Below are positions 7,419 to 64,000 of a stretch of 64,000 bases of DNA, in pieces. The notes beneath the pieces were generated by a model. That model was not told where the DNA came from and made no database searches. It was given only the letters and a program-made list of their open reading frames with translations. The DNA comes from Chondrosia reniformis (Eukaryota > Porifera > Demospongiae > Chondrillida > Chondrillidae). The stretch's first letter is position 1, and the number at the start of each line of letters is the position of its first letter. Made by a program: the position numbers and the translations under genes. The DNA lies in assembly GCA_947172415.1 (NCBI GenBank), contig OX359190.1:7626001-7690000 (forward strand). The letters are read 5' to 3'.

Positions 7419-17111
<9,693 letters not shown>

Positions 17112-18930: not shown

Positions 18931-19529
18931 TTACACCTATCAATATGAGAGTTCTTTGGTAATTTTGTAGCGGCGTCGTAATCTTTCCAATTTATATTGT
19001 TTTCTTTACTATTTCCACCATTAAACTCTTTGTCTAGTATTTAATATACTTTGTTATCAGTATATGGTTTCAGAAATGTTCTACAAGTGAACTATCAGTG
19101 TATGCTTGTGAAATGATTCAGCGTAAGAACTACCCAACATGGAATTGTTATTCTCATTCCAAAATCTCATTAACACTGGCATTCACTGATCTGTAGTGGT
19201 TTTCCTACTTTCCCTCTACAAAGGCGTAGTGACAGTCACTGCTTATTACCTTAATATTCCCTACGAATACCATAGCCTTCCGGTGTCACATGTGATACTC
19301 TTACCAGTTTCTCTCCACCTTAAGAACATCTATACTTTTACTTGGAAATAGATGGCATTTTTAATGTAATTTACTTGAACAGACAGTACTCCATAAGCCA
19401 TATTGTTTTAATCTCTTGAGGTGATTCTGTAAAGAATATCAACTGGCCTCCTGTGTCTGTATTTGAATGTGATTGTTGTGAAGTTAAAACTAGTATTTAC
19501 AAAGCTATAATCACAGGAATACGTACATT

Positions 19530-19605
19530 AGGTCAGACCAGCCTAGTGACTGAGGTCTTATATAGCCTGGGGAACTGAAGTCCTATGAAATGTGGCAACC
19601 AGTGA
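19530..19605 (-). repeat. fragment of the retrozyme-like repeat (R family)
   Basis: Reads GACCAGCCTAGTGACTGAGG and GGCAACCAGTGAATCC, the terminal part of the R family described at 35925 and 37613. The ribozyme end is absent. Confidence 0.55.
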
Positions 19606-21870: not shown

Positions 21871-24800
21871 GAGGAGGAACATGATCCTCTGGTTCACAGC
21901 CTGCAGAGGCTCTATGACCAAGCTATGGTGATGCCTCCGGATGCCAACCCTGATCCAAATCTCTTCCTGCCGCCATTTTTGGAGGTCATTCGTAATGAAT
22001 ATACTAGTGGCCAAGTGACTGGAATGGCTTTGTCAGCAATCAACAAGTTTCTGGCTTATGGAGTTATTGGTATGTACTTTATGTAAAACTTTGTTAGTGA
22101 ATGAATGTGTAATATCAAGGTTGATAATGCATGGTATACTCGCTGGAAAATACGTAGATGTTTTCTGTTTATATTACTATGAAGTGTATGCTAAGAAGGG
22201 AGTTTTATTACTTTAGGGACTTACACAGGCAGCCCCTATATTGTTTTCATTCTTACTTCCAATTGTTGATGCTCATGTCATATATATGTATGTATGTATA
22301 AGTATATGTATATACGTACGTAATATGAGGCATTTGGAAGCTAAGGCCATGTAAATTTGACTCGCAGTTTATCATCATGTACCGAAATAGTGTAGCCTGA
22401 CAATGCAAATCAACCTGGTTGTGTTTGAACTGACATTTCTGCACCATCATTTTACGTGGGACTGTGATCTATACTGGGATGTGGTTTTAGCACAAGTTTT
22501 TTTGAGACAGAACTGGAGTTGGGCAGGGATGGTAAGCTGGGAATCAAATTTGCCTGGCCTAAAGTTAACTAGAAGCTTCCCTTTAATTTTGAGGTTATTT
22601 ACGTACGTAAGTATCCTCTTCATTGTATTTTCCCACTTCTGACAGAAACCTCCCTCCAGGTCCAAAAGTGTATCTGCTACCTAGGAGCTTGTATACCATA
22701 TACCAATGTATACGTACAAATACATACATATGTGGTATCTTATTTTTGATAGATTTTTCATCATGTGATGGAAAAGCCATAGTTTCTATGATAGCCAATG
22801 CATTATGCCATGCCCGTTTCTATGGGGAGAACCCTGCAAGTGATGAAGTTTCCTTAATGAAAATTCTGCAAGTCTTGAGAACACTTCTTCTGAGTAATTA
22901 TGGGACCCTCCTTACAGATGAAAATGTTTGGGAAATCATGAAGGCTTGTGTGAATATTTGCTTTGTTAACTCACTCTCTGGTAAGCAGTAAATGTACGTA
23001 CGTATGTGTTCTCTTTGAATACCTTTATACAGTATAAATGATGACTGGGAGGCGATCACTGGTTGCCAATTTAATAGGACTTGGTCCCCCAGCCAAGATT
23101 AGACTTCTGTCACTTGGCTGGTTTGGTGTAATACTTCTAGTGATTATTTCTTACTTATCAGTATATTAGTACGTAGTTGTATATTGCCCCATTTCATGGT
23201 GGATAAATTAGCATTTATCAACTCTACTACTCATTCATCCAGAATTGATTGGTCGTGCAAGTTCCCTATCAATATCACCACGTAGGGTGTCAAGTAAGAT
23301 TGTGCTTCGAGTGGCTAATAATGTGACTTGTAGTTTTTGGTGCTTCTTTAATGGAAGAGGGATCGATTTAGTCTGTGTAAAGTGTTTTCTTACTCTTATT
23401 AAAAATTTGATGTACGTATATGTATCTGTGGACCCATGTATTACACCATCTCCTAAGTTTCATATGGTAAGGTTGTTTACCAGCAGTGTGGGGCATTTAA
23501 ATTATTTTCAATCTACGTACATATTTTCACATATCCATTTAAGGGGTCCAAAGGAAGTGTTTAACAAAAGAGTGTAGTTTTGTCTTTGAGATGGTTTATC
23601 TTTACCTTTGCCGTCCTGCCTCATCATTACCTTATATGTTGTGTGTGTCGTTTGTTACCATATAAGGTACGTACGTACATACACATACAGTAATAAGGAA
23701 TTTACGTAGGTAGGTGTGGCTAAACTATTCTATAGACTATCAAACATACAGTTTACCTTTCCATTAGTTAATTTCTATTATAATTTACTCCATTATACAT
23801 GAATGGATCGTAATAGGGACTTTTCCTTTTTTCCAGAACTCTTGCGTCATGCTGCCTTTGTAACTCTTGATGACATGATTCAAATGTTGTTTTCAAGTCT
23901 CCCAAGTATTGCAGCTAAACATGCCGAGCAGAAGGCCAAGCTCAGAGAGACACAGAGTAAACAAGATGGAGGTACATCCTACCTGTGATCGCTGGTTGCC
24001 ATTTTGATAGGAGTTTGGTCCCCTAGCCAAGATGAGACTGTGGTCACTTGACTGGTTTGGTGTATTAACTTGCAGTGGAAAAATAGGGGAACTTTAAAAT
24101 CTAAAGCCAAATTTAAAGCATTGATACCATCATCATCATCATTGAACTCTGGACATTACCTGTCTGTCTATGGCTCGACCATCTTTTTGAGTGGCTAAGG
24201 GGAGACTCTGGTTCCCATCAAGCGAACTTTGGTTCCGCCCATTAGCTCATTGCGCTCCTCAGGGGACATGAGTGGGCAGGGGTAATATCCAGATGATGAT
24301 AACTTGCAGTGATTAATCACTTTTCACCATACCTTTTTATGAGGCGTTGTATGAGATATTGTGTGCCTGTCTATTTATATACTGTACATAGCTGCCAATC
24401 CTTCTTTTCTCTAAATTTGGCATTCTCTACTGAATGTACATACGTAAACTTAGTGTGTATACAAAGGTATCTTAGTTAGAGTACTTAACTGCACCTGTTC
24501 CTCCATGTGTGTCGACATTTATTGATGGTGCACAAAAGTGATTATTATGTGTTGACATATATACACGCAGTGGATATGCTATGCCCATTATTTTAACAGA
24601 TGGTACGACACCTGAGGACTCTCTTGAGGTCATCGGAAACAAAGTAGAGAATGACAAAGCGTTTCCAGTGACCGAGAGGAAGTCTACCCCTGATGGTGTG
24701 GTGGGTGTGGTGGAGGAGGAGGAGGAAGAACCACCTCTCCATCCCGCTCCAATAGCTCTTAATGAAGAGGATCAAGATACCCCAACAACACCTCCAGAAA

Positions 24801-27800: not shown

Positions 27801-30800
27801 GATTTTAACATGAAAGCCTCAAAAGGTATTAAATTCTTACAATCTAAAGGATTAATTGCGGAAGACAGGCCAGAGGAGATTGCAAAATTCTTGGTGGATA
27901 ATCCGTACCTGAACAAAAGCACAATTGGAGACTACATTGGGAGTCGTAGCCATGAAGATGTGCTAAAAGCATTTGTCAGGTAGGGTTACCTACGTATATT
28001 CTACATGCACTCCGTTGCTGGGGCAACCAAGGCAAATTATATTCCACAACTGAAGTATAACTATATCATGCTGATAACTCAGTAAACCCCTATAAGCTTA
28101 CGTTATCCCGCAAAAATGCAAAAAAGCCTAGGGGCTGAGTGTATTTTATGATAAATCAAAATATCTGAAACACTGAACCTATGTACGTATTTCAGTGAAA
28201 TATTTTGTTATTTCATAGTTACTGTACCTTGAACCATTTCTATTTATGTGAATCTTCTAGTATCTAAAGTAACTTGTAGTTACAACTTATAGTTTTCACC
28301 AGTACCTTCTATTCTCTCTATTACAGACAGTTTCAGCTGCGTGATACATCACTTGTAGATGGTTTGAGACAATTCTTGGAAACTTTTAGGTTGCCGGGTG
28401 AGGCCCCTATTATTTCAAGAATAATGGAACACTTTGCTGAACACTGGCTGGTCAGTCTAGTTATGTAATGAAGTGTGTTAATGATGAAATTTGGTCATTC
28501 GAGAGTTGTTACTTTGTACGTATGTATGGTGTGAATGTATGACAAGTTGAGTGTTCCCTATTTTAAGCAACAATTTATTCAAATTATGTTCTGTAATAAC
28601 CATTGGAGGGGTTCTGGAATGGTTTATCTAACTGGGTAGAATCCATGTTACATTTTGTAACCATAGCTACAGTATGTGCATATATGTACATGCATGCCAA
28701 GGACTCACAAAAGATCAAGAAGAAGATAAAGACTCCCAGGATCACTGATGAAGGGTAGAATTCCCAGAAACAGCGGTCTGGCCCAGTGCAGATGTAGAGA
28801 GGTAGAAGGAGAAAACTCTGTATCCTCATCCAAAGTTCTCACTAGGTTTAATTCTCTATAGGCTGTATTCTAAAGTAGATGTAGCTTGTAAGAAATATGG
28901 TGTGTTAGATTATTCATGTATATTTTGCTATTGAACAATTTCTTGTTTGTTTTGTACAGGTTTGCAATGAGGACAATATAGCCAAAGGCATTGGTAGCAA
29001 AGACGCAGTCTATGTCCTCTGCTATGCAATACTGATGCTCCACACTGATCAACACAACCCACAAGTTAGGAACAGGATGACAATAGCAGTGAGTTAGCCT
29101 AAAGTTTCAGCATGTGTGGAAGGAACATTTGTTTTTTGCTTCTCTATGTGATATGCTTTGTATGTATAGCAATTCATAGTAATTTTAAAGTTGATAACAA
29201 TAAGAATGCTGTACTAATATTAATGTACATACGTATACATTCTATATTTAAATAGTCACTTCTATTAATAACAATTTCTGATATAATAAATATGAAGAAT
29301 TGTTTAGCAAGTTCCTCCTGTGTTCAAAATTACCAGAACACTCACTTTGTGCTGTTGCTTTTTCTAGGAATTCAAGAAGAACCAGAAAGGGGTTAATGAT
29401 GGTAAAGACTTCCCTGCCGAGCTACTGGAGCAAACGTACAAGTCTGTTCGGGAGAAGGAGTTTATCATGCCTGATGAGCATTATGGAGCTGTCAAGGAGA
29501 ACTACAAGTGGAAGGCAAGCAGTATTATTGTTGCTTTAATGATCTGTCTTTTGAGTGTCTACTGAATTTGTGATATTATAAGTACTCCAACTTTGCTACT
29601 ATGCGTAATCAGAACTTCTTTGTCACCTTATATTTAGTATTTTGATCATAAGTTCCAGTATAGGCCAAGCTCATATACAGTAACTCCTAATATAAATATG
29701 CTGTAACTCCACAGTTATTTGACTAGTGTACATTTAGTGGCACTTACTTAATAAGGTTTTAAAGCATTTCTTACATTTACATACAGTATGTACGTTTCTT
29801 AATGGCTTTGTTTAGATTCTTCTAAGGCGCAGTTCACAGTCCGGTGCTGACCACTATCTGAAGCCTCAGACTGCCCTCTACCATAGCGACCTTTACCTCA
29901 TCCTCTGGGGACCAGCCATAGCTGCCCTTTCCTATGTGTTTGAGAATGGAGTGGAGGAGGCTGTCGTCATGTCGGCCATGTTGGGATTTCAGAAATGTGC
30001 CGCTATTGCAGCACACTATGGCCTTTGTGATGTGTTTGATAACATTATTATCACACTTTGCAAGTTCACATCATTGTGCAACGCTCCAAATGAAGTGAGT
30101 GCCTGATATATGTAAATGTAGAACAATTTAGCATTATTGTTTTGTACAGAACAAATCTGATAAACCTTTAAAATGAAAACAGTTCTGTTTTAGTTAAAAT
30201 TTGGAAAATATTCTTAGCAATATAACAAAGGGTATAATGAATACATCGTACACAATGAAGGTTAATGATTATTTCTGTTAGTCGATATATGTAACAACAA
30301 AGATTATTATTATTTCATTATTTTATCCATATTGTATTCTGAAGACCATTTTAACCTTTTTAGAACCATTTTCGTTACTGTGTAATAATCCTACCTAATA
30401 TTTTATATTCACCCTCGACTGTCACATACGTATATGTATGTAATGTATGGAAAACAGTATGTAGTACTATGATATTGCTACTGCGTATCTGTTTAGTCAA
30501 TGCCTTCAGCTGTGCTGACTTTGGGGACCAATCCAAAGGCTCAAAAGAGTGCAAAGGTCATGTTTGCTTTAGCTCATAACCATGGTAACATTCTACGAGA
30601 AGGATGGAAGAACATATTGGAGCTTCTTTGGCATCTTTTCAAAGTTAGTTGTGCAGTGTACACTACATTGCACTGAGAGCATTCTATTCCTTCAGTATAG
30701 CCACACTATAGTTATACAATAGGTACAGGCTGGAGTGATTTACAGTGTAAGCACATTACATGTTCAACTGTATGTAACATGGCAGAACGTCAGTTGGTTA

Positions 30801-33800
30801 CTCGTTTGAAATTGTTTGATCAGTAGTGGCCCTTCACATTTCAAGCTTCTTCAAAAATTCTGTGACTGTGGTTCAAGTGGTGTTTCACGGGCTGTGTCAT
30901 TTTATTTGGTCCTCTGGTACAATTTAATCATTTTTTACAACTTTCTTTTTCCACAGGCCAAGTTGCTTCCACGGGAACTGACGGAATCTGAGGACTTTAT
31001 TCACAGTAGTGGAAAGATATCACTGTACAAGGAGGAGCCGATTCCCACCAAATCTGACTCTGGCATTCTCTCCTTCTTTGCCTACAATTGGCTAATAAGT
31101 TCAGAACAATCACAGAGCTCCAAGACCCCTCCACAGGCCGATGGCAAAGCACTCAAAAATGCACTGAAATGTGTTGAGGTACGTATGTGATGAAGCTTAT
31201 TTTACCAGTAGAGGTATGATTTTTTATTATATTGAGCTTGGAAAAAATGGACAAAATTTATAAAGAAAATAGGCAATTTTAGCCAGCAGTTAATTTTGGC
31301 AGGTATTAGTATATCAAGGTGTTACAGTTAATATTCTCAATAGAGGGTTTCTGGAATCTACGTAGTAAGCCCTCCTCCAATGTTTTTAAAAACCCTGAAG
31401 GACTGGAAAGGATATACGTATGTAATACATGTCTAAATGTTAAGCCACGCATTGTGAAAGTTGGTTGTAGAATGCTTGCATATTATATACCTCAAAAGTT
31501 TCCCTCATTCTCTAAACCCCAACCTCCTGTAACACAATAGTAATGACTATACACTGTATGATCTTATTTTGACATATGTAGGATTGTCATCCTGAGCTCC
31601 TGTTCAGTGAAAGCAAGTTTCTAAAACCAGAAAGTCTCACAGAGTTAATAAAGTCTTTAACATTTGGCTCACAAGGAATTGAAGCACATGAGCAGTTAGG
31701 AACAAGTTACGACGAAGAGTCAGCTGTTTTCCATCTGGAGTTACTTGTCTCTGTAGTGATTGAAAATAGGTGTGTTTCAAGAACACAAATTAAAATGTCT
31801 CTACATTACATTTGTCAGTTTTAGAATGCTAAAATGTGATATGCATTCATTCTTAACATTGTTGACATCTTCTGAAATGATACAAAAGATTTTAGGTTAA
31901 ATTGTATATTCCATTTTTTATATATACACCTACAGTACGTACATGTAGGATCATATCAATTTTACAGTATATTGTACTTGTACGTATAGGGATCGTATCA
32001 TTTTTATGTGGCATGAAGTGTCTAATCACTTTACAAGAATCATTTTAACACAAAGTCACCGCAGCTACCTGAAGGAGAGAGGAGTTGTTGGCTTACTGAA
32101 AGCTGTAAAAAGATTGATCTCAAGAGATGAAGTCAGAACTGAAGTAAGACACCTCTTAAAATGTTTCTTTGAGTATTGAAATACTTTTGGTTCATGTTTA
32201 ATAAGGTAGAATAGGATAAACAAAAATCAATCTTTCTACGTATATATTTATTGGTCCACTTAAGAGCTAAAGTGTAGGTAGATAGGGCAACTGGAATATA
32301 CAGTACCAAAATACTAAAAGTATTGTTACACAACTGTTTTATTTTTACTAACAACAGTTGTGGTTTGGATCCAGATAAGTACGTACGTGTCATCATGATC
32401 ACCTTGGTTTGCATATACGTACATGTACATATGTAGTATATACCAGGTGTGATAACTTGATTTAAGCTAGCGCACACCTTATTATTGTGTTGTTACATTT
32501 TAACTGGATAAATATCCTCATCATGCAGGTATTGTCCTCCTTGAGGATAATCCTAGCCCTTCCATTAAAGGACCTGCCCCACAGACTGCTGAGTCAGCTG
32601 TCTAATGGTCTCCATGAGGTGTTTCAAGCCAGTGTAGCCCACACAAAGAGTTCATATGATTGGCTCATTCTCATGGCAGTCCTGGAGGGCTGCAGTGCTG
32701 GGGTAAGCTTCCACCCAAAATCCCCTCTTAGTAGTGACACTAACCTGTCACATTCCAGTGATGACCAACCATCTGAACCCTCCCAGAATTCCAGTGAAAA
32801 TAGTTTAGTGCCTTTTATTCCTCAATCAACTGATCATCTTGTCAAAGCTATGAATAACTTTGATGTCTGGCCATCTGAGACGTTAGACTGGCCACATCCA
32901 TCTCTTCTCTTTAAAGCATGCGAGACCTTAGCCTATCTGATCCGAAACGAAAGGCACACGACAAAGGAAAACTTTACTAGCTGTATCCACGCTGTAAGGA
33001 CACTGGCAGAGGCTACTTCTACCCCAAAGGCTCTTCAGCATGACCTAAAGAGAACAGCAGCAGCACAACATGGGGCGGGGCCATCACCAAGGCAACAGGC
33101 GTCCAGAGGAAAGACATCCCACGTAGCAACCAAAGAGCCTCAACCATCATCTCCTCCAACAGGCAGTCTGTCCTTTAGCACCATCACAATCCAACTGCTA
33201 GACCTGATGCATACCTTGTATTCCAGAGTGTCAGACATTTTTGCTAATGGTCACCAAGGAAAAAGAGCTGGTTTAAACCCATCAGCCAGTGCGTCTCTAT
33301 ACTTTTCAGAGACAGACAAATCTCATCAGTCCACAGGACCTCTATGGCACAACGCTTGGTGTCCCCTGCTACAGGTCAGTTTACCAAATATACAGGGTAT
33401 GCTCATTTGGTTTGAAATGATAGGGGTTGTTTGTTGCATATCTTTGTGATGGTACATCGGATGATACATTCTTCGATTTTTTGAGTGTTTAGAAACGCAG
33501 TTTGGTTTCACTTCTTGGTCAAACGTTTCGACCCTGGGGATCTTCTTCAGCGACTGAGTGACTTTGAGAATAGTATTAGTTTATTGAGCCTCGATCACAT
33601 TTTCAGTAATTGAATATTTTGACCCAGAGGTCTTCATACAAATTATTATTGCTGGTTAAGACCTCTGGGTCGTAAACCTCAATTGCTGAAAAGCATTGTT
33701 TGCTGATCCATTACTTTATCACATTTCAAGATAAAGATCTATTGTGCTACAAACCAAATAAGAATCGCATTAGTTTAAATAATCCTCAAGTAAATCTTTA

Positions 33801-35665
33801 TGATCTCTGTGATTTTATTGTGTATATATTACATATTGCATAGGGAATGGCTCGCATGTGCTGCGACTCAAGGCGTAGTGTTAGGCATACAGCTATCAGT
33901 TACCTCCAGAGAGCACTGCTTGCTCATGATCTACAGCAGTTGAACCCCACAGAATGGGAAGCCTGTTTCTTAGATGTAAGTATCTAACAGGAACATATTT
34001 GATATTATAGATATTAGCTTTAGCACTATTCAGATATCATTTTCCCACATGAAAAATATAGAACACAATATTCTAGATAATTATGGTTACCATGCCGATA
34101 AACATAAAGAGGATAGACTTTAAATTTTCTTAGACTAGTTACTTAGGGAAAACCTAAAGAGCCTTGGATGAGGATATCGTTAGGCTTCTCTTTCTTCATC
34201 TATTGTCCCTAACATGTAAATGTGATGATACTTGTAGTAAAGGTTTATAAACTGGAGTCACAATCTTCTTACTCTTCATTGTTCAATTATGAGCCTATAT
34301 TCGCGTCTGTTTTGGTGATTTGAAGTGTTTAATACACATGCAGGTATTTTTTCCAATGTTGAGTCGATTATTGGATGGGGATGACATGATGGATGCCTTT
34401 AGTTTGGAAGAAACAAGAATGAGAGGAGCCCAACTTCTCAGCAAAGTTAGTAGCAGCTGACTACCTATGTATTTTTTATGGTTTGAATTTGGTGAACTTG
34501 CACAACTGAGATTTACCTTGATTATATATATTTAGCATATCTTGGAAATATGTAATGAAAGTTAACATTATTGCTCTGATTACGTACCTGTCTGCTATAT
34601 GACCTCCATGTTATTATATTTCCTTTAAAGGACTTGTTCTTTGGATATATTAGGTCTTTCTGCAACATTTGTCTCCTCTGTTAAAGTTGAAGAACTTCCA
34701 AGAGTTGTGGCTTGGTATTTTGGATGTCATGGAGAAGTATTATTTTATTGAGAATTCAGAAAGTTTGGTGAGCACTTTAGGTTCTGTAGTGATTTTACCT
34801 TGAGTTGAAGGATCTAATTGACCATTAACTTTTGAATGTATAGGAGTAAAGCCCTGTCTGATATGATAGTAAAATGGCCGTTCAATTGAATGTGCTTTCC
34901 ATAGTATAACTTAGGAGGCTTAGGATGCACTAAGTGTAAAGGAATGAGCTCTGTGTCAAAGTGATCCCTTTTTTCTTACAGACAGAAGCTATACCAGAAT
35001 CTCTGAAGAACATGCTGCTAGTAATGTCCACAGCTGGGCTTTTCGGTAACATTACAGAGATAATTTCCTTGGAAAGTAAAGGAGACCAATCATCTCTTAA
35101 AGAGGACCATGGCTTTCAATTATGGCAGTTGTCATGGCAACGTATTGAAAAATTTCTTCCAAAGTTGCAAAGCGAAATATTTCCCACTTCCAAGAGTTCT
35201 TCAGTCACATCCACTGACGTGACCACGCCCACTGATGTGCCCACCTCCAGTGGTGGCACAACTACAGAACAAGCTGTAGAAAGAGAATCAGAAAATGGTA
35301 ATTCGGAACAAGCCAACACTGAGAAAGTTAACACTCCACCTAGTAAGCACATCTCTGAACTTGTGCACACTCTAACAGTTTAATATGGACGTCTATTTTA
35401 CCATTGTAATAACTGCAATATTAACATACATATGTAGCCTTTAGCATATGCCTTATAATTCTTAACACCTTAACACTTAACTGCATGTAGTGCCCGTACA
35501 GTTATTCTGGTTCCCTTGCATCCTTACGCAGGTGTGATGGCAGCAACTGGGGAGGTCGTGATCCCAGGTCAGCCGGTACTGATATCACCTGTGACTGTTG
35601 TGAAGCTCAGTAAACCATTACCAGTAGTAAACAATGTTTCAAGCACTAATAACCAGTCATCATAG
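21871..35665 (+). CDS. GBF1: GBF1, Sec7-domain Arf guanine nucleotide exchange factor (5' end missing)
   Basis: GBF1 activates Arf1 at the cis-Golgi for COPI recruitment. Exons: 21871-22069, 22753-22980, 23837-23971, 24600-24803, 25501-25838, 26155-26253, 26424-26519, 26688-26789, 27393-27979, 28327-28450, 28960-29088, 29368-29514, 29816-30094, 30497-30643, 30957-31178, 31582-31769, 31990-32143, 32529-33374, 33844-33975, 34344-34445, 34654-34767, 34982-35342, 35532-35665. All join in frame: 1688 codons plus stop, against about 1859 in human. DCB-type start: [25 protein letters not shown]. Sec7: [23 protein letters not shown], catalytic glutamate loop RLPGEAP, and LHTDQHN. HDS regions: [14 protein letters not shown]. 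The intron after 29514 has a GC donor (AAG|GCAAGC); all others are GT-AG. Exons before EEEHDPL were not found. The last five exons are duplicated at 48570-50385. Confidence 0.95.
23038..23150 (+). repeat. R-family fragment in GBF1 intron
   Basis: GATGACTGGGAGGCGATCAC, GGTCCCCCAGCCAAGATTAG, CACTTGGCTGGTTTGGTGTA. Right part of the R family, without the hammerhead end. Confidence 0.75.
23978..24085 (+). repeat. R-family fragment in GBF1 intron
   Basis: GGTCCCCTAGCCAAGATGAG and GGTCACTTGACTGGTTTGGT. Diverged right part of the R family, seven bases after the GBF1 donor at 23971. Confidence 0.7.
24180..24300. repeat. dispersed repeat, copy 2
   Basis: Same family as 17740-17905: CTTTGGTTCCGCCCATTAGC, CTCAGGGGACATGAGTGGGC. 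Located in a GBF1 intron. Confidence 0.5.
25958..26050 (+). repeat. tRNA-like SINE head or tRNA pseudogene
   Basis: A box-like CTGGCAGAGCACTGG, a loop containing CAT, and a T-arm CTGGGTTCAATTCCCAG with a perfect 5-bp stem (B box GGTTCAATTCC). The acceptor stem pairs only in part, so a functional tRNA is unlikely. A T-rich pyrimidine tract follows. Lies in a GBF1 intron. Confidence 0.6.
28007..28140. repeat. dispersed repeat, copy 2 (family of 8580)
   Basis: Begins CACTCCGTTGCTGGGGCAAC, continues GGCAAATTATATTCCACAAC and GATAACTCAGTAAA. In a GBF1 intron. Confidence 0.7.
28684..28900 (-). mobile_element. SINE body with hammerhead-like core
   Basis: Near-complete body in a GBF1 intron: CCAAGGACTCACAAAAGATC, CACTGATGAAGG, GAAACAGCGGTCTGGCCCAG, CCTCATCCAAAGTTCTCAC. 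One change in the palindromic CAGCTG (CAGCGG). Confidence 0.75.
33449..33580 (-). repeat. solo PLE-type terminus in GBF1 intron
   Basis: CTTCGATTTTTTGAGTG, AGAAACGCAGTTTGG, TTTCGACCCTGGGGATCTTC, TTCAGCGACTGA. Matches 62850-62945 next to the partial PLE. On the minus strand the motif is CTGAAGA, a GATCC..GGGTC stem and GAAAC, hammerhead-like. Confidence 0.65.
33625..33675. repeat. short palindrome at the left end of the duplicated block
   Basis: GACCCAGAGGTCTT faces AAGACCTCTGGGTC across an AT-rich spacer. The segmental duplication (copy A) starts right at its end. Confidence 0.75.
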
Positions 35666-35924
35666 TTGTGTGTTCTGGAGCTTTTATTATTTATGATGTA
35701 AACATTCAATAAGTAAAATATATACTACTCCATTGTTGATTGTGTCAACAATGAACGCGTACATGTATAGTAACTCAGACATGTATGTATTTATTTGCTA
35801 TATACGTACATACGTACATAGGTTATGAAAAGGGATAGGGGAGGAGTGTATAACTATTACATGAAAAGGGGAAGTTTATTGCACTTGAACCTGTGCTAGG
35901 CTATTGTTGCAAATAATAAACAAC

Positions 35925-36094
35925 ACTGGATAATTATACGCCAACCAACCAAGTGACAATCGTCTACTTGGCTGGGGGATCAAAGTCCTATTTGTGGCAA
36001 CCAGTGATGACCTCCCAGTCATCCAATGATGGCAAAAAATCATCAATGAACCACAGACAGCTGTTTCGCCCTCTTTAGGGCTCATCAGTGTGGT
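35925..36094 (-). mobile_element. R-family retrozyme-like repeat with intact hammerhead
   Basis: Non-coding repeat about 170 bp long. On the minus strand it runs from the hammerhead (36050-36094) through GATGACTGGGAGG and CCCCCAGCCAAG to GGCGTATAATTATCCAGTG. No ORF, so it must depend on another element. Lies downstream of the GBF1 stop. Confidence 0.75.
36050..36094 (-). ncRNA. type I hammerhead ribozyme motif, complete
   Basis: Minus strand in order: stem I strand ACCACA, core CTGATGA, stem II GCCCT-AAAG-AGGGC (5 bp), core GAAA, palindromic CAGCTG as stem III, UC cleavage site, stem I strand TGTGGT. All stems pair and all conserved core positions are present. The self-complementary stem III suggests action as a dimer, as known for other short-stem-III hammerheads. 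Cleavage is predicted, not shown. Confidence 0.8.
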
Positions 36095-36781
36095 ATACAT
36101 GTATTTCTGGACATGCATGTACTTAAAAATGTTTATGACATTGCATTAATGCATTAATTTGGGAAATTCAAAGAACAACAGAATTAAAGTTATTGGCTTT
36201 TGATAAACAATGGAATGCTTGCAATATATTTTCAAAACTAAAGAGACTTATATAAGTTTCCAGTTCCAAAATTACACACTATAATTCAGAATCAGTTCCA
36301 GTTTCAAAATCACACACTATAATTCAGAATCAGTTCAACAAAGGGGTACAAGACTCCTAGGTAGAATCCTTTCCTTTCTATTAAATCTAAACAGAATCTA
36401 AACGGGAAGACATGTACAATTAAGCATTTATTTGTACATAGCATATATGATATTGCAATTGTATTAAAATCGGAAGTGGTTCAATTTAAAAGACTCGAAA
36501 TATTGTGTGAACCCAGCGTTATAATGAGCCAAAGGTATCATTCAATGCAACCTGTCTCACAAATCTCACAAAATACAAAAATCTGTGTTTGTATATATGC
36601 AGCTATGTTTGTACAACCCTATCAAATAACTGATACATATGCAGTTAACACTTGGTGTCAACACTCAGACTAAGCTTATCCTAAAGAGATCTTTGTTTTT
36701 AAAGATCTGATCATAGAATAAAACTTATAAAATAAAAAATAATTTTGTATGTTAAATTCAATTTCATTTAGGCCATTATAG

Positions 36782-39700
36782 CTACGTTTCCTCTTTCTTG
36801 GGAACATTTACAGCATCATAAGATGGATTGGCTTCCATTTTGACTATATCAGATGGCACCTCATACTTGACCTCCAGATCATCCTCAAACCTAAGCAACA
36901 TTAAGAATGACATCCATGCACTAAAATCGTGTATATAAGACTCCTAGAAATAAGCATACTAGAGAGACAAGGATTCACAAAAGACTCCCAGGTTCACTGA
37001 TGAAGGGTGGAATTCCCAGAAAGAAAAGAAAAGACTCCTGTATCTTCATCCACAGCTCTCTACAAGTTTAGTTCCCTATAAGCATTTTACAGAGTAGGTA
37101 TTGCATGTATATATATAGGAAAAACGGTGTATTAGATTTTTCATACAATAGATATATCACTTGACTGCACATGCATAACTTGGCTAATGAGGTGCATGGT
37201 TCACGAGTTACGCATATAGTTGTAATTAATTACTAATTATAACTTCAAGAAATTCAGCCTAATCAGTATTATTAAGCATGTGTTTTGTATTATTGCATTT
37301 TATAGATTTCTGAAATCTTATATAATTATTTGGCTTCTAACTTTTCTGATATTTCTCTCTTCTTAAATTTAGTGAGATAAAGTTTAAACACAATACAACT
37401 GCCTCCAACTCCAAAAATGACTCCAATCAAAGCACCTCCCAACAGCAATCCAATGGTGGACCCAACTGGCAAGTCTGACTGAAATGTGACCACCTCAACC
37501 ACTGTGTAAAAGATGATTTTATACGTATAACTCATCATATCTGTAATTAATGGTGCATGATAGGAATTTAGATATATCACTGATATCTCCATATTTATAT
37601 ATAGCAACTATAAGTAAAAATATTCACTGGAAAATATTACGCCAAACCAGCCAAGTGACCGAAGTCTAATCTTGGCTGGGGGACCATCATTGAAGTGTAC
37701 GACACTGATGAGCCCAAATGAGGGCGAAACAGCTGTCTGTGGTTCTTTGATGATTTTTTTTCCATCTTGGATGACTGGGAGGCGATCAATGGTTGCCATT
37801 TTTAATAGGACTTCGGTCCCCCAGCCAAGATTAGACTTCGGTCACTTAGCTGGTTTGGCGTAATATTTTCCAGTGAATATTTTTACTTATCATCCTAGCC
37901 TTTGCACGGCTCATTGCAATTAACTCCCTTTTTCATAGCAACTATAATGTGGACATGATGAATCACTCAATTATTCCTAGTTGGCATATTATTCTACATA
38001 TGGAATAGGTAGGCTCAAAGTTGTGTCATTCTTAAAGACGTCATCAATTAATGTACCAAGTACACTACTATGAACAAAGATAGCTATCCTATAAGGTTCC
38101 TCACATGGCAACAAGGTCATTGTCATGGATATAGGAAGGCCTGAATTAGGTCATATTACATTCTAGTATAATACAATTGTCACTTTTGCTACATCTTCCA
38201 TTGAGGTCAGAGTTGGCAAGTTTGTCAGAAATGTCGTCTAAGTAATTACACATGTCTTCTTTTGATACAGAAATGGGAGAAGACGTTGGAGATGGTTGAG
38301 GTACTTCTGTAGTAGAGGATGTGGAGGGTGTACCTGAGGATGTGGAGGGTGTAGCTGAGGATGTGAGAGTTCCAACAGGTGGCAACGTAGTCATATCACA
38401 ATACATGTAGATCTTAGTCAAAGGTAACAGAGCATCTCCCAATGCTAAAACCTAGAACAACAAATGGAAATAATTCTGATTTTCATGGACAATTTCTTAG
38501 AGATTTGCTAAAATAAACCAGATTAGTCAAAATGAGTATCTTGTTGGAAAAGTAATTTATGTATTCCATTACTTTTATTGTTATTTGATACATTGTTCAT
38601 CTTATAGTACGTACATGGTATATTTACTTAGACACATATACATGTATACTCACAGATATATCCACTCCATAAGTTCTTTGAATTAAGATTATAGTTGCTG
38701 TTATTGGTAAGCCTTGAAACTGAACTGTTACATTTCCAGTATATTTATCATTAATCTGAATATTAAAATTAGTAACATCCACCAGAACTCCAACTGCATA
38801 AGGGTCTTCACATGGGTAGAGTATGATGTTTAGATTTATGGGTATACGACCAAATTGAGTAACAGTAATTAAATTACAAAGTAGAGTGATGCAGTCTTCA
38901 GATATATCACAATCTCCAGAAACTTCACTAGCTGCGCTAAATCTATTATAAATACTCTCCAATGAATCACACATGTCCTCTTTCGGGTCAGGAGTAGGAG
39001 ATGGTGTGACTGATGTACCTAAATACAAACAATAGGAGTACCTGAGGATGTGGAGGGCGTAGCTGAGGATGTGATGGGTTTACCTGAGGATGTGGAGGGT
39101 GTAGCAGAGGATGTGGAGGGTGCAGCTGAGGATGTGGAGGGTGTAGCTGAGGATGTGGAGAGTGCAGCTGAGGATGTGATGGGCTTAATTTCACAAAACA
39201 TGAAAATTCTTGAAGATGGCAAAACAGTAAGTTCCACTGCTAATGATGGTACTGTCACTGTAGCCTGAAGTAAAATATAATGAAAAGTAAGTAGTTATTG
39301 CAATGTTGACTGTCTAGTTAAAAATCTAAAAACAGATTAACTACAAAATTGAATACTTGGATATAATATCATGATATTGCAACTACTGGTATTAATATTA
39401 GCATCACAAATGACTTACAATTTATAAACATTTACACAGTCCTGATAAATAAACATATAAAAATCATATAAAACCATATTGTAAAGTTTAATAAATACTT
39501 TATATGTCAAGAAAACAACATCAAAAACAGAATGGAACCAACTTAAAGTTTTCTTATATACACGTATATAAGGTCACCTATTTAGTTTAGATGTTTCAAA
39601 CTATAGTCAGCAGTACCGGGTACCTGAGTTCCATTCCATATAAAGTCCATCATACTAGTTTCCACTAACCTCCACACCTATGAAACCACTTCTTTGTGAA

Positions 39701-42700: not shown

Positions 42701-45700
42701 AATGTACCACCAAGTGCATTACTATGAACAAAGATAGCTACCCTATAAGGTTCCTCACATGGCAACAAGGTCATTGTCATGGATATAGGAAAGCTGAAAT
42801 AGGTCATATTACATTCTAGTACAGTACAATCGTCACTTTTGCTACAGACTCCATCGAGTTCAGAGTCGGCAAGTTTGTCAGAAATGTCGTCTAAGGAATT
42901 ACACATGTCTTCTTTTGATACTGAAATTGGAGAAAATGTTGGTAAGATGGTTCCAGATGGTGAAGGCTGTGTTGTAGCTAGAATAAGAGAGGGCATGGGT
43001 GAGGTTGGGTAGGATGGTACAGCATATGAAATATTGCCAGAAGAATATTGTATGGTAAAAGAATATAGTATGGTACATGGTAAAAGAATTTTTTATGCTA
43101 AGAGAATTGTATGTACATATATAGATAATATATGGAATAAGGTATTGATGGTATAGTCGTGTTTTTGGCTCAGTGGTAGAGTAGGCTAAATTCCCAATAG
43201 TGCCTGCACTCCATAATGAAACAGTTGTGGTTCAATTATCACTTCAATTATTCATATATATACACATGGCAGGTAGACACCACACTGCTCCAATGACACA
43301 TACTACAGTAAACTTAGTAAGAGCTTTGGATGAGGATACAAGAGTTTTCTCCTTCTACTCTTCTTCTCCACTGGGCCTTTTGTACAATAGAATAGAGCTC
43401 CAAAGGACCTGGATTCCCAACATTATCACTTCAGCTCCAAAGGACCTGGATTCCCAACATTATCACTTCAGCTCCAAAGGACCTAGATTCCCAACATTAT
43501 CACTTCAGCTCCAAAGGACCTAGATTCCCAACATTATCACTTCAGCTCCAAAGGACCTAGATTCCCAACAATATCACTTCAGTTCCAAAGGACCTAGATT
43601 CCCAACATTATCACTTCAGCTCCAAAGGACCTAGATTCCCAACATTATCACTTCAGCTCCAAAGGACTTGGATTCCCAACATTATCACTTCCGTTCCAAA
43701 GGACCTGGATGGGTAGGGCCAACATCAGAGGAATGCAACATTATTCTACAGATGAACATTAACGGAGTAGCTCAAGTGACAGAACATGCCTCCTTTCCTC
43801 AGACACAGACAACCAGTAGCCTCAGGGAGCTAGTCATGTGACCTTCAGACACAGACAATCAGTAGCCTCAGGGAGCTAGTCATGTGACCTTCAGACACAG
43901 ACAACCAGTAGCCTCAGGGAGCTGGTCATGTGACCTTCAGACATAGACAACCAGTAGCCTCAGGGAGCTAGTCATGTGACCTTCAGACATAGACAATTAG
44001 TAGCCTCAGGGAGCTGGTCATGTAATCTTCAGACACAGACAACCAGTAGCCTCAGGGAGGTGGTCACGTGACCTTCAGACACAGACAATCAGTAGCCTCA
44101 GGGAGCTGGTCATATGACCTTGGACACAACTGTTTACCTCTTAGTCTGATAGGGTGGTATCTAGGAAGAAGATTTGGAGGAAGGGAGATCTATAGTACCT
44201 GTAGACATGTCTCCCATGATTCTGGGGTATGGTCCCTAGGAATTTTGATTTCAGGCCCTTTCTAATTGATTGTAATGCAATCTGAGAGATAACTATTGTA
44301 TTTTTGGAATAAAATTAATTAGTTACAGTTAAAAATTACTTATTGAGTAAATAAGACCCATGAAAGGAAGTGAAAAAGAGAGAGGAGTTGGAAGGTGACG
44401 TACATAGTTATTCTTCCTGTGTCTTGATATGTACTACCTAACTCATAATATGTAGACATACGTATGTCTACTGATAGGCCAGAGATATCTCTATGAATTG
44501 ACAAACCTTTTGGGGAGAAAGCTGTAGAGTTTGGTGGAGAAGTTCCTCCCACTAGATTAAACTCTACCCTACCATATGGTTCCAAACATCATTCAGAAGC
44601 TGTTTACATATATACGTACATACTGTAGGTTCATGTTAACCTTTCATTAAGTTTACATATGCAGCACTCCTAAATAAAGTGTTGTGTATAGAGCAATGCT
44701 TTCTGAACTTAACCAGTCATGCAGGCTAATTCAGAGAGAGAAACCTCATGATTGATTGATTTTTCTGTAAGACTTCTATTTTAGAAGCCTCATGAAACAT
44801 AAATATTAAATTACACGTTCACACATAAAGGTTTCACATAACAACTGGTTAAAATGTACATAATCATATTCTACAAAGTGTAGAATGATCCAAATTTAGA
44901 TGATGCAAACCATCTAATTAGAATGCAGGAGGCAATAATGATGAGCATAGTGATTAAGCAATATGTCACTGCAACTGCCAATCAGATGGTACCATGCGTC
45001 TAATAACCACGCCTCAATTACAGAAGTCCTCAAACCTCACCTCAATTACAGAAGTCCTCTAACCCCTACTCTACGTATCTCTGCAGTGCCTGTGGTCAGA
45101 AGTTATTTCTAAAACTGAGACTGTTTCAAAGCCGATATGTACTTATAAAACTTTATCTTGTATTCACATGTTATATCTAGTCTTGATAGATTACATGTCT
45201 AATTTCCAAGACATTGCAATGGTGCTGCAGGTCTACACTGATAAATACATCAAATGGATCACATCACCAATCCTCCACATCAAAGGAATACTATATCCCA
45301 GGAAACCATAAAAGAAAGAGTGGGAGGGTTGCCATGACTACCACTTAGGAAGTCTGGCGTAATGCCACCGATCAAGCTAGTGTATTAATGAGAATGCCAC
45401 CTCACATGATCAAGCTAGTGTATTAATGAGAATGCCACCTCACATGATCAAGCTAGTGTATTAATGAGAATGCCACCTCACATGATCAAGGCATGAAGAC
45501 ACTCAAGAGCACTCAACTTAAGGCAAACCCATTTTGCTTTTAAGGGGCTTCCCCTTAATAATATTTACCCCTGCCCTTCCACCTTCAAGACAGTTTGCCC
45601 CACCTTGAGACAGTTTACCCCTGCCCTTCCACCTTAAGACAGTTTGCCCCTCCCCCTTCCACCTTCGAGACAGTTTGCCCCTCCCCCTTCCACCTTCAAG

Positions 45701-48436: not shown

Positions 48437-48569
48437 AAGTCATAAACTTCAATTGCTGAAAAGCATTGTTTGCTGATCCATTACTTTATCACATTTAAAG
48501 ATAAAGATCTATTGTGCTACAAATCTTTATGATCTCAGTGATTTTATTGTGTATATATTACATCTGCAG

Positions 48570-50385: not shown

Positions 50386-50614
50386 TTGTGTGTTCTGGAG
50401 CTTTTATTATTTATGATGTAAACATTCAATAAGTAAAATATATACTACTCCATTGTTAATTGTGTCAACAATGAACAAGTATACATACAGTAACTCAGGC
50501 ATGTATTTACTTGCTATATACGTATACGTACATACATAGGTTATGAAAAGGGGGAGTTTTTTGCACTTGAGCCTGTGCTAGGCTATTGTTGCAAATAATA
50601 ATCAACACTGGATA

Positions 50615-50774
50615 ATTACGCCAACCAACCAAGTGACAATCGTCTACTTGGCTGGAGGACCAAAGTCCTATTTGTGGCAACCAGTGATGACCTCCCAGTC
50701 ATCCAATGATGGCAAAAAATCATCAATGAACCACAGACAGCTGTTTCACCCTCTTTAAGGCTCATCTGTGTGGT
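50615..50774 (-). mobile_element. R-family repeat, copy B, hammerhead decayed
   Basis: Partner of 35925-36094. The ribozyme region 50730-50774 has CAGATGA in place of CTGATGA and weakened stem II, so it should be inactive. Confidence 0.75.
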
Positions 50775-51504
50775 ATACATCAGTAGCTGAAAATGGATGA
50801 CTGTTCTCTGCTTATCAATCCACCACAAGTGTTTCACATAGGTTATATGCTCCGCTTTTGATCTGTCAACTCAAATACATAATGTAATGACCATGTGTTT
50901 GCCAGCAGTAGAAATAAATTGTGTTGCCCATGCATGGTTATTTAGCGCAGTGACTAATCTTGCAATTTTTAATCTGATAGATAATGATCCCACCATTATC
51001 AGCTCATTGCCATGGCAGTGTTGTGTATATTCTCAAATGAAACTAACTTTTGCTTTTAAGATTAATTTACTTCTGTTTGTCTCTCACTCACAACTTGTAT
51101 TTACCTTATAGTGTTGCCTAGACATCGATTATGATATATAATATTTTGATTGTTACATTAAAAGTAATTGTATGAATGCAATATATGTATTTCTGGACAT
51201 GCATGTACTTAAAAATGTTTTTGACATTGCATTAATGTATTAATTTGGGAAATTCAAAGAACAACAAAATTAAAGTTATTGGCTTTTGATAAACAATGGA
51301 ATGCTTGCAATATATTTTCAAAACTAAAGAGACTTATATAAGGTTCCGTTTCCAAAATCACACACTATAATTCAGAATCAGTTCAACAAAGGGGTACAAG
51401 ACTCCTAGGTAGAATAGTCTCTTCCTTTCTATTAAATCTAAACAGAATCTAAACAGGAAGACAATTAAGTATATGTATTTATATCATTTGTACATAAGCA
51501 TATA

Positions 51505-62369: not shown

Positions 62370-62805
62370 AACTTCATGGTGAGAGTTCATATCTTTCCAT
62401 TTGGTAGAGTTACAGTTTGGGTATACAGACCTGGAGTTAATGTATGGTGAGAGATAGGGCAAATTATAAGTTCCATAAAATTTCCAAAACCTCATTGAAC
62501 ATACTGTACAGATGTCTGTGATTGCTGACACAAAGTAGTAACTTCATATCATTCTATTTTATAGAATTACAGCCGTCAATGTACATTAAATTCTGATATA
62601 CAGAGTTAATGTATTGTGAGAGATAGGGCAAATTATAAGTTCCAGCAAAATTCCAAAAACTCATTGAACATACTGTACAGATGTCTGTGATTGCTGACAC
62701 AAAGTAGTAGCTTCATATCTTTCCATTTAAAAGAGTTACAGCCATCAATGTACATAAAATCTGAGTTAATGTATGGTGAGAGATAGGGCAAATTAAAAGT
62801 TAGAA
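62370..62805 (+). repeat. 160-169-bp tandem repeat
   Basis: About 2.5 units marked by GAGTTAATGTATGGTGAGAG at 62434, 62603 and 62763, with AGATGTCTGTGATTGCTGAC in each full unit. Between copy B and the PLE. Confidence 0.85.
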
Positions 62806-62809
62806 TAAG

Positions 62810-64000
62810 GATTTCTTCTAACTGCGTCGAACTTATCTTTGTAAAGATTCATCTTTCGATTTTGGGAGCATCTAGAGACGCAGTTTTTTCAATTCTTCTT
62901 TCTGCCAGTTTCGACCCTGGGGGTCTTCTTCAGTGACTGATGTTGGTTTTCAAGGTGTCTTCATTTATAGGCATCCATTTCGATTACCTCATCAGTGATG
63001 TCATCGGTTACATCATTTCTGGAGGAAGGTTAAGTGAAGGGAGTATTCATAAAAAAGGGTTTCCAACCACTTTATAGTACAATTCCTTGATCTAAGTTCA
63101 TTCTTACCTGACATTGTTGGATCTTCAGGGCTTCCTTAATCCTTCTTCTATACCAGTCCTCTTCCCTCTCCACCACTCTGGCTTGGCTCCACTCAATTGG
63201 ATGGCCAGTTTTTAGGGAGTGAACAGCTAAGCCATTGTTCACATCCCCCATCCTGACTTTCAGCGTTCTTCCTGTTTCTCTAGTGTACACTGCAGGGCAA
63301 CTAGAACAGGGGATCTGGTAAACGACACCTTTAATATCCATGGTAGGCTGTGGTTGTTTAGGCCTAGAGAGGATACTCCTCAGTGATCTCTGCTTTGTGA
63401 AGATGGTTTCAATGTTCATCTTCCGGCATGTTCTGGAGATCATTTCACTGAGGCCTTTCACATACGGAATAAAAAGTTTACGTTTACCATCTACCCTACT
63501 TCCCTGGCTCCGTTGTCTCTTCATGTGCCTAGCAGCAACCTTACTGGGGTATCCATTGGCCTGGAGTACCCCTTTCAGGTGCTCTTTTTCCTCTTGGAGG
63601 ACACTGAATCCAGCACTACAGATCTTCTCCGCTCTGTCCCTGAGGAAAGGGCAATGCCAGCTTTCACCCTAGGATGGTGATGAGATGAGAAGTGAAGGTA
63701 TCTATCCGTGTGGGTTGGTTTTCTGTACACGGATGTACTCAAACTTCCTTTGTTCTTCTTCACTAGCACGTCAAGAAACGGGATAGAACCATCTATCTCC
63801 TCCTCCATGGTGAACTGGATGTTTCCATGTCTTCCATTAAGGAAAGATAGAAAATCCTCCAGCTGATCCCTACCCTGGCTCCAGATGACAAAGGTGTAGT
63901 CTACATAACGTAGCCAGAGCCTGGGTTTGGAGCCAGCCTCCTGGAGGGCTTCGTTTTCAAACTCTTCCATGAAGATGTTTGCCACCACTGGAGAGAGAGG
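62810..64000 (-). mobile_element. Penelope-like element, 3' part (reverse transcriptase and GIY-YIG), runs off the window
   Basis: The reverse transcriptase C-terminal part is at 63575-63988: SPVVANIFMEEFENEALQEA, WLRYVDYTFVIW (the usual YVDD reads YVDY here), FTMEEEIDGSIPFLDVLVKK, VYRKPTHTDRYLH. The GIY-YIG endonuclease block is at 63072-63330: GVVYQIPCSSCPAVYTRETG, RTLKVRM, LKTGHPIEW. This order is diagnostic of endonuclease-bearing PLEs. The two blocks are open in different frames, so this copy is broken by at least one frame disruption. The 5' part lies beyond 64000. A hammerhead-like terminus (62905-62945) lies 3' of the coding part. Confidence 0.92.
62905..62945 (-). ncRNA. hammerhead-like motif at PLE terminus
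   Basis: Minus strand: CACTGAAGA, stem GACCC-CCA-GGGTC, GAAACTGGCAG. CTGANGA and GAAA cores are present, with one extra A before stem II. PLEs are known to carry hammerheads in their terminal repeats; activity of this copy is uncertain. Confidence 0.5.

What the first reader, a model, noticed from the sequence alone, without database searches (positions are those of the whole stretch)
36050..36094. Complete hammerhead ribozyme in a short dispersed repeat (R family)
All core positions and three stems are present, with a palindromic CAGCTG stem III, a form expected to work as a dimer. The host repeat is about 170 bp and non-coding, with further copies at 37613, 50615, 23038, 23978 and 19530. 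This fits a retrozyme-like element: a non-coding RNA that self-cleaves, possibly circularises, and is reinserted by another element's enzymes. Hammerheads in metazoan retrozymes and PLEs are known; this family and its arrangement may not be described.
Basis: partly seen in the sequence, partly recalled or inferred. Interest (0 to 1): 0.82.

Follow-up and report, generated by a model that had tools for sequence, protein, structure and literature searches.

The report
Sponge hammerhead retrozyme with Penelope-type insertions
A short non-coding mobile element in a sponge genome carries a hammerhead self-cutting RNA motif, and the scars it leaves in DNA look like those of Penelope retrotransposons, which suggests which machinery spreads such ribozyme elements in animals.

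Summary
The hammerhead at 36050-36094 is real, on the minus strand: Rfam Hammerhead_1, 39.4 bits, above the gathering score; its pattern never appears in 100 shuffles. The host repeat is not ~170 bp but a 352-358-nt non-coding unit (A, B); a related family C (354 nt) covaries with it in stems I and II. Monomers fold strongly (z -5.1 to -6.8). This fits metazoan non-LTR retrozymes.

The new point is how copies sit in DNA. Many are head-to-head pairs inside one short target duplication. 3' ends fall at two fixed sites, 44-56 nt apart. In the 23 of 36 head-to-head clusters where both outer ends could be assigned, one was site I and the other site II every time (two are duplicates of one insertion). 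Autonomous Penelope-like elements (PLEs) of the same genome do the same in 6 of 6 pairs examined. Published work gives this tail plus inverted arms as a PLE hallmark (PMC3846280, PMC11167929). Best reading: a non-autonomous retrozyme reinserted by PLE enzymes. Self-cleavage, circular RNA and trans-mobilisation are inferred, not shown.

The parts
36050..36094 (-). type I hammerhead, core intact; predicted cleavage between 36056 and 36055 (after GUC)
   Evidence: RF00163 39.4 bits
35861..36100 (-). R element (family A), 5' part missing; 3' end at site II (..CCCCTTTTCAT)
37614..37936 (+). R element (family B), complete head-to-head insertion: short inverted arm ending at site I on the left, main arm ending at site II on the right
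   Evidence: (I7)
37603..37613 (.). left copy of the target duplication AGCAACTATAA
37937..37947 (.). right copy of the target duplication AGCAACTATAA
37699..37743 (+). second hammerhead, core intact, one stem I mismatch; predicted cleavage between 37737 and 37738
   Evidence: 26.1 bits (below gathering score)
50543..50831 (-). R element (family A), 3' end at site II; probable target duplication ACATAGGTTAT at 50534-50544 and 50836-50846
50730..50774 (-). decayed hammerhead (CUGA to CAGA), paralogue of 36050-36094
23040..23151 (+). R fragment from downstream of the hammerhead
23987..24077 (+). R fragment from downstream of the hammerhead
19507..19605 (-). R fragment from downstream of the hammerhead
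62802..64000 (-). 3' part of a Penelope-like element (ORF 3' end with GIY-YIG-like C-terminus, 3' flank); runs off the window; candidate kind of helper

Best explanation
The R repeat is a non-coding, non-autonomous retroelement of the retrozyme kind, with a 352-358-nt unit and a type I hammerhead, and it is inserted by the proteins of Penelope-like elements (PLEs). Proposed cycle: (1, inferred) read-through RNA holding one or more units is made; (2, inferred from the motif) the hammerhead cuts after GUC, probably as a dimer because stem III is a loop-less palindrome; (3, inferred) monomers are ligated into circles; (4, from the insertion structure) a PLE-type RNP cuts both target strands with a short stagger, and each 3' OH primes reverse transcription at one of two internal sites of the RNA, about 145 nt (site I) and 191-199 nt (site II) downstream of the cleavage site, usually one site per strand; (5, from the structure) the two cDNAs run to variable points, sometimes more than once round the unit, and are joined head to head, which leaves 3' ends outward inside one target duplication.
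For: Hammerhead: (72 genome matches among 73 scored of 11,921 candidates; 51 over the cut-off). Covariation between families: 97.1% of cells paired, 37 cells with changes on both sides against 13.0 in shuffles, slid controls at most 45% paired. Bipartite stem I: the first three pairs beyond a 3x1 internal loop pair in 29, 30 and 32 of 37 distinct copies; the unpaired U on the 3' side is in 37 of 37. Monomers: GC 0.44-0.45, circular folds z -5.1, -6.8, -5.4. Units in tandem: L041 and C loci L056, L058, L062, L064. Insertion: 36 head-to-head clusters among 64; 23 of 36 have both outer ends assigned and 23 of 23 are site I plus site II, none I+I or II+II; a target-duplication score of at least 6 in 27 of 36 head-to-head clusters against 5% of 300 random placements. 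Same in PLEs: two 3' ends 36-37 nt apart; 6 of 6 pairs one end each, with 9-13-nt duplications; 27 of 36 neighbouring PLE matches within 6 kb are head to head. [quoted passage not shown] the PLE PAc cuts and extends both strands and starts reverse transcription internally, the tail lying between two start sites (PMC11167929, main text).
Against: No expression, cleavage or circular RNA data. R and C units share no sequence with the PLE family found here: no match in 19 of 20 PLE loci, and one 30-nt C piece outside the element in L073. PMC3846280 reports no cross-mobilisation between PLE families and infers co-adapted cis sequences, so the helper may be a PLE not sampled here. PAc showed no difference in start site between strands, and its insertion in vitro did not need the hammerhead. 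No 5' end found exactly at the cleavage site: 0 of 48 matches in C; in A 8 of 56 begin near it, and none of 6 fetched begins exactly there. Arms within a pair are not always from one template: identity above the between-locus mean in 16 of 22 pairs, below in 6. Two covariation measures do not exceed shuffles: pairs changed on both sides (3 against 3.3) and pair types (9 against 12.2), so the covariation is essentially one split between two families at three pairs. Unconstrained RNAalifold on the 45-nt motif prefers a competing fold. Core sites are not spared in A/B copies. No LINE or SINE of this genome was examined as a control for the end pattern.
Confidence: 0.7

Rival explanations
1. R is not a retrozyme proper but the free-living pLTR of an autonomous PLE family not seen here (a 'solo pLTR' or internally deleted PLE), which keeps the hammerhead and start sites of its parent.
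For: PLE pLTRs of other animals carry hammerheads and tails (PMC7761336 passages; PMC11167929); PMC3846280 passages report solo pLTRs and captured sequences between pLTRs. The end structure is that of PLEs.
Against: No similarity of R/C units to 20 PLE loci apart from a 30-nt piece outside the element in L073; no PLE coding sequence in L001-L072 apart from a 39-residue match in L033; 0 of 103 listed hammerheads within 2 kb of a listed PLE C-terminus (8 of 70 extra Rfam matches left out by hand). But 5 lie within 5 kb (random mean 1.1, maximum 5) and 23 within 50 kb (random mean 8.1, maximum 19). Only one PLE group was sampled, and lists are capped.
Confidence: 0.2
2. R is a retrozyme moved by a LINE-type machinery; inverted copies come from twin priming and the two 3' ends are chance or alternative RNA ends.
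For: Metazoan retrozymes were proposed to be moved by LINEs or PLEs (PMC7229834, passages). 5' truncation is also a LINE trait (general knowledge).
Against: In twin priming both inverted parts come from one RNA with a single outer 3' end (general knowledge). Here both outer ends are 3' ends, at two sites, one each in 23 of 23, and the resident PLEs do the same.
Confidence: 0.07
3. A terminal-inverted-repeat DNA transposon (MITE or foldback element) that happens to hold a hammerhead.
For: At 37.6k two 76-nt arms, 99% complementary, flank the motif, and there is an 11-bp duplication.
Against: The two outer ends are not the same sequence (site I against site II in 23 of 23), inner junctions vary between copies, and 28 of 64 clusters were not head to head.
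Confidence: 0.02

Closest known systems
Metazoan non-LTR retrozymes (Cervera and de la Pena 2020, PMC7229834)
   Same: Type I hammerhead, non-coding unit within 170-400 nt, low GC, strong self-pairing, units in tandem, co-existence with PLEs.
   Different: A sponge family: 'sponge', 'porifera' and 'amphimedon' occur 0 times in the main text of that paper. Most copies here hold about one unit or less, and many are head-to-head pairs with two fixed 3' ends; I saw no such description in parts 1-2 of 6 and the passages that I read.
Penelope-like elements, Penelope/Poseidon type (PMC3846280; PAc, PMC11167929)
   Same: Head-to-head inverted arms, short target duplication, tail on one arm, internal start of reverse transcription, partial tandem units, hammerhead upstream of the start sites.
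   Different: R and C have no ORF, a tail of 44-56 nt rather than 30-40 bp, and a bipartite stem I; PLE hammerheads are described as minimal, lacking helix III or the loop-loop contacts (PMC7761336 passages).
Plant LTR retrozymes (PMC4918200; search listing only, plus what PMC7229834 says)
   Same: Non-coding, hammerhead-bearing, thought to pass through circular RNA.
   Different: Type III hammerheads, LTRs with primer site, 600-1000 bp, 4-bp duplications; none of these here.

Membership tests
Metazoan non-LTR retrozyme | type I hammerhead | tested here: met
Metazoan non-LTR retrozyme | non-coding unit of about 170-400 nt, GC under 50% | tested here: met
   units 352, 358, 354 nt; GC 0.44-0.45
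Metazoan non-LTR retrozyme | tandem units, dimers to multimers | tested here: inconclusive
   tandem in 1 of 34 A/B loci (L041) and 4 of 23 non-overlapping C loci (L056, L058, L062, L064); the rest hold less than two units; no long arrays seen
Metazoan non-LTR retrozyme | highly self-paired circular RNA | tested here: met
   prediction only: circular folds z -5.1, -6.8, -5.4 against 100 shuffles each
Metazoan non-LTR retrozyme | expressed as linear and circular RNA; self-cleaves in vitro | not testable with these tools
   no RNA data held
Penelope-like element | ORF with reverse transcriptase and GIY-YIG endonuclease | tested here: not met
   R/C insertions are short and non-coding; no PLE coding match in L001-L072 except a 39-residue piece in L033
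Penelope-like element | adjacent inverted copy (head to head) inside one short target duplication | tested here: met
   36 of 64 clusters; duplication score at least 6 in 27 of 36 against 5% of 300 controls
Penelope-like element | optional tail on one of the inverted arms | tested here: met
   23 of 23 assigned pairs have exactly one tailed arm; the genome's PLEs 6 of 6
pLTR of a PLE of this genome | sequence shared with a PLE pLTR, or R next to a PLE ORF | tested here: not met
   one PLE group sampled, lists capped
TIR DNA transposon or MITE | same sequence at both termini | tested here: not met
   site I and site II differ

The most novel reading that the evidence does not exclude
Sponge retrozymes are parasites of the PLE machinery: one hammerhead-made RNA circle serves as template for both ends of a PLE-cut target, the RNP dimer holding two distinct start sites so that each strand primes at a different one. 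This would explain the strict one-site-per-arm rule, the head-to-head junctions, the >1-unit copies (up to about 804 nt, 2.3 units, in L062) and why PLEs and retrozymes occur together in animals.
Probability: 0.35. Interest if true: 0.8.

Novelty: new variant of a known kind. Interest (0 to 1): 0.6.

Why it matters
Which enzymes move animal retrozymes has been open; PLEs were named as strong candidates on grounds of co-occurrence (PMC7229834, PMC7761336 passages). The insertion scars described here are a physical test of that idea that can be repeated in any genome with both elements. The strict pairing of the two 3' ends also constrains how PLE-type integration works, since PAc showed no strand difference in vitro.

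Tried and rejected
TIR transposon: suggested by the inverted arms, rejected because the two ends differ. R as pLTR of the resident PLE: looked for in 20 PLE loci and, by Rfam, in 16 sources (15 of those loci and L093), not found. Copies made from a cleaved linear RNA: looked for 5' ends at the cleavage site; none exactly there, though in family A some lie within a few bases (L096 about 2 nt and L097 about 6 nt after it; L098 and L099 keep 3-5 nt upstream of it). One shared template for both arms: mixed result. Exogenous viroid-like relatives: exact core patterns of A and C gave 0 matches in the viral contigs (exact matching only). A first loose pattern scan was too permissive to use. Linkage of hammerheads to PLE ORFs: none within 2 kb, a modest excess at 5 kb (3 of the 5 are one C cluster) and at 50 kb; for that count 8 of the 70 Rfam matches not already, and the one 42-nt match, were left out by hand. 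Pfam on 10 window ORFs gave no hit for the PLE ORF; it was recognised by eye from its GIY-YIG-like C-terminus, then by its many genome copies and long ORF relatives.

Not done: no search of other animal genomes (none is held), no RNA data, no control on LINEs or SINEs, no full PLE census. Copy numbers are lower bounds: the tool scored 40 of 436 and 40 of 669 candidates for R, 40 of 1134 for C, and 73 of 11,921 for RF00163, a list which does not even contain the window's own 39.4-bit copy.

Full report
Observation. The hammerhead at 36050-36094 is on the minus strand and passes the Rfam gathering score (39.4 bits). A search of the window for CTGATGAG..CGAAAC..GTC finds it and a second copy at 37705-37737, and nothing in 100 shuffles. 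Predicted cleavage is after GUC, between 36056 and 36055. Stem III is ACAGCUGU with no loop, so a monomer can hardly close it; a dimer can. Unconstrained RNAalifold of the 45-nt motif indeed prefers a competing fold, which fits that view but is not support for the ribozyme.

Host. The genome holding the window has 117,379,552 bases in 15 contigs. The lengths of its 14 large contigs agree at two decimals with 13 of the 14 chromosomes of Chondrosia reniformis odChoReni1.1, the other differing by 0.01 Mb (8.95 against 8.96), and the remainder of 17,451 bases equals the 17.45-kb mitochondrial genome (PMC12181767, passages). This is an inference from sizes, not a label.

Unit. Two tandem copies in L041 are 358 bp apart; A units span 352 bp. 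A second family, C, with units of 350-355 bp in tandem in four loci, has an alignable hammerhead but an otherwise much diverged sequence. Coordinates below count from the cleavage site. The three monomers fold as circles with z = -5.1 (A), -6.8 (B) and -5.4 (C) against 100 dinucleotide shuffles each, GC 0.44-0.45.

Selection on the ribozyme. On 37 distinct 45-mers, 97.1% of cells pair under the hammerhead structure and 37 cells have changes on both sides (shuffles 13.0, none of 500 as high); slid controls pair in 24-45%. Two measures do not stand out: pairs with change on both sides (3; shuffles 3.3) and pair types (9; shuffles 12.2), so the covariation is mainly one split between A/B and C at pairs 1-45, 5-41 and 15-26. 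Beyond stem Ia all 37 distinct flanks have a single unpaired U on the 3' side, and the next three pairs form in 29, 30 and 32 of 37, with changes between G-C, A-U and U-A types; 105 of 148 cells pair against 33-75 when slid. So stem I is bipartite, as in full type I hammerheads, rather than minimal. Single copies decay without regard to the core: 26 of 42 A/B copies have an intact core, core sites mutated in 3.7% and others in 3.0% of cells; 9 of the 20 core changes are at G12, next to a C, as in CpG decay. In C 32 of 34 are intact, but these were chosen by Rfam score.

Ends. In 60 stretches (34 R loci, 23 non-overlapping C loci of 30 brought in, and three window stretches) 64 clusters were mapped; 36 have a minus arm on the left and a plus arm on the right, so both outer ends are 3' ends (one, WIN50k, only through a spurious 16-nt match). 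3' ends fall at two sites: I, 147/151/143 nt, and II, 191/196/199 nt from the cleavage site in A/B/C, hence tails of 44, 45 and 56 nt. With a tolerance of 9 nt, 23 of the 36 have both outer ends assigned: 23 are I plus II, 0 are I plus I or II plus II; the other 13 have at least one end that is neither site. L070 and L071 share flanks and are one insertion duplicated, so 22 are counted as independent; other duplications were not searched for. The best matching flanks score at least 6 in 27 of 36 (all 23 of the assigned), in 8 of the 28 other clusters, and in 5% of 300 random placements. The script's repeats are 7-14 nt and may include element letters or simple sequence (L056, L019 are doubtful). 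The window's own example is clean: AGCAACTATAA at 37603-37613 and 37937-37947.

PLEs. The window holds the 3' part of a PLE (62802-64000, minus), of which at least 151 relatives are in the genome. L094 shows the usual plan: 858-codon ORF, 303-bp direct repeats (98%), and an inverted head-to-head piece. Their 3' ends also fall at two sites, 36-37 nt apart. In all 6 pairs for which both outer ends were in hand, one arm ended at each site, inside 9-13-nt duplications; of 36 neighbouring PLE matches within 6 kb 27 were head to head, 2 tail to tail and 7 in the same direction.

Interpretation. PMC3846280 (passages) describes for Penelope an inverted pLTR next to the direct ones, duplications of 8-10 bp and a 31-bp tail optionally present at one of the inverted pLTRs. 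PMC11167929 (main text section) shows that the PLE PAc cuts and extends both strands and starts reverse transcription inside the RNA, and calls the tail the stretch between two start sites. R and C bear the same marks without an ORF. Hence: retrozyme by anatomy, PLE by insertion. The helper need not be the sampled PLE, since no sequence is shared and PMC3846280 found no cross-mobilisation between families. The hammerhead's part is inferred: copies of up to about 2.3 units (L062: 688 + 116 nt) need a multimeric or circular template; no copy was seen to start exactly at the cleavage site.

What is new. The searches made listed no paper that describes a sponge retrozyme or this end pattern in retrozymes, but I saw only listings for most of them (10-20 of up to 1,400 papers), the library is open-access only, and the key PLE hammerhead papers (Cervera and de la Pena 2014; Lunse et al. 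2017; Arkhipova et al. 2017) are not held and were seen only as references. I therefore rate it a new variant of a known kind.

Noticed in passing
window ~51.57k (plus); fragments 12701-12769, 28769-28834, 43325-43373, 55153-55203; L015, L020: Another dispersed repeat with a hammerhead-like motif (CACTGATGAAGGGTGGAATTCCCAGAAACAGCTGTCTG): largely complementary stem I and the same CAGCTG palindrome, but an A.A at the base of stem II; not reported by Rfam at E<=1.
   Followed up: partly
window 33669-36100 and 48439-50780: Segmental duplication, 93% identical, of the 3' part of a GBF1-like gene; both copies carry the same R insertion.
   Followed up: partly
L033 897-993: A ~98-bp piece of PLE sequence sits inside an R copy, with about 8 bp of R repeated on its two sides: a very short PLE insertion.
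   Followed up: no
L094 near 780; PLE 3' flanks: The resident PLEs carry a degenerate hammerhead-like stretch (CACTGAAGAAGACCCCCAGGGTCGAAACG) upstream of their start codon; Rfam does not call it in 16 sources.
   Followed up: partly
window 249-5020: 158-bp satellite, 30 copies, 94% matches.
   Followed up: no
window 14343-14437: Hairpin resembling MIR8675, 54.8 bits, below its gathering score 90.8; it is an inverted repeat and may be element-derived.
   Followed up: no
window 57813-58188 and 59944-61046: Long near-perfect inverted repeats (arms of 178-192 nt, 99%), nature unknown.
   Followed up: no
whole genome: PLE matches concentrate in the middle of chromosomes (135 of 150 in deciles 4-6) while hammerhead copies are spread more evenly.
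   Followed up: no
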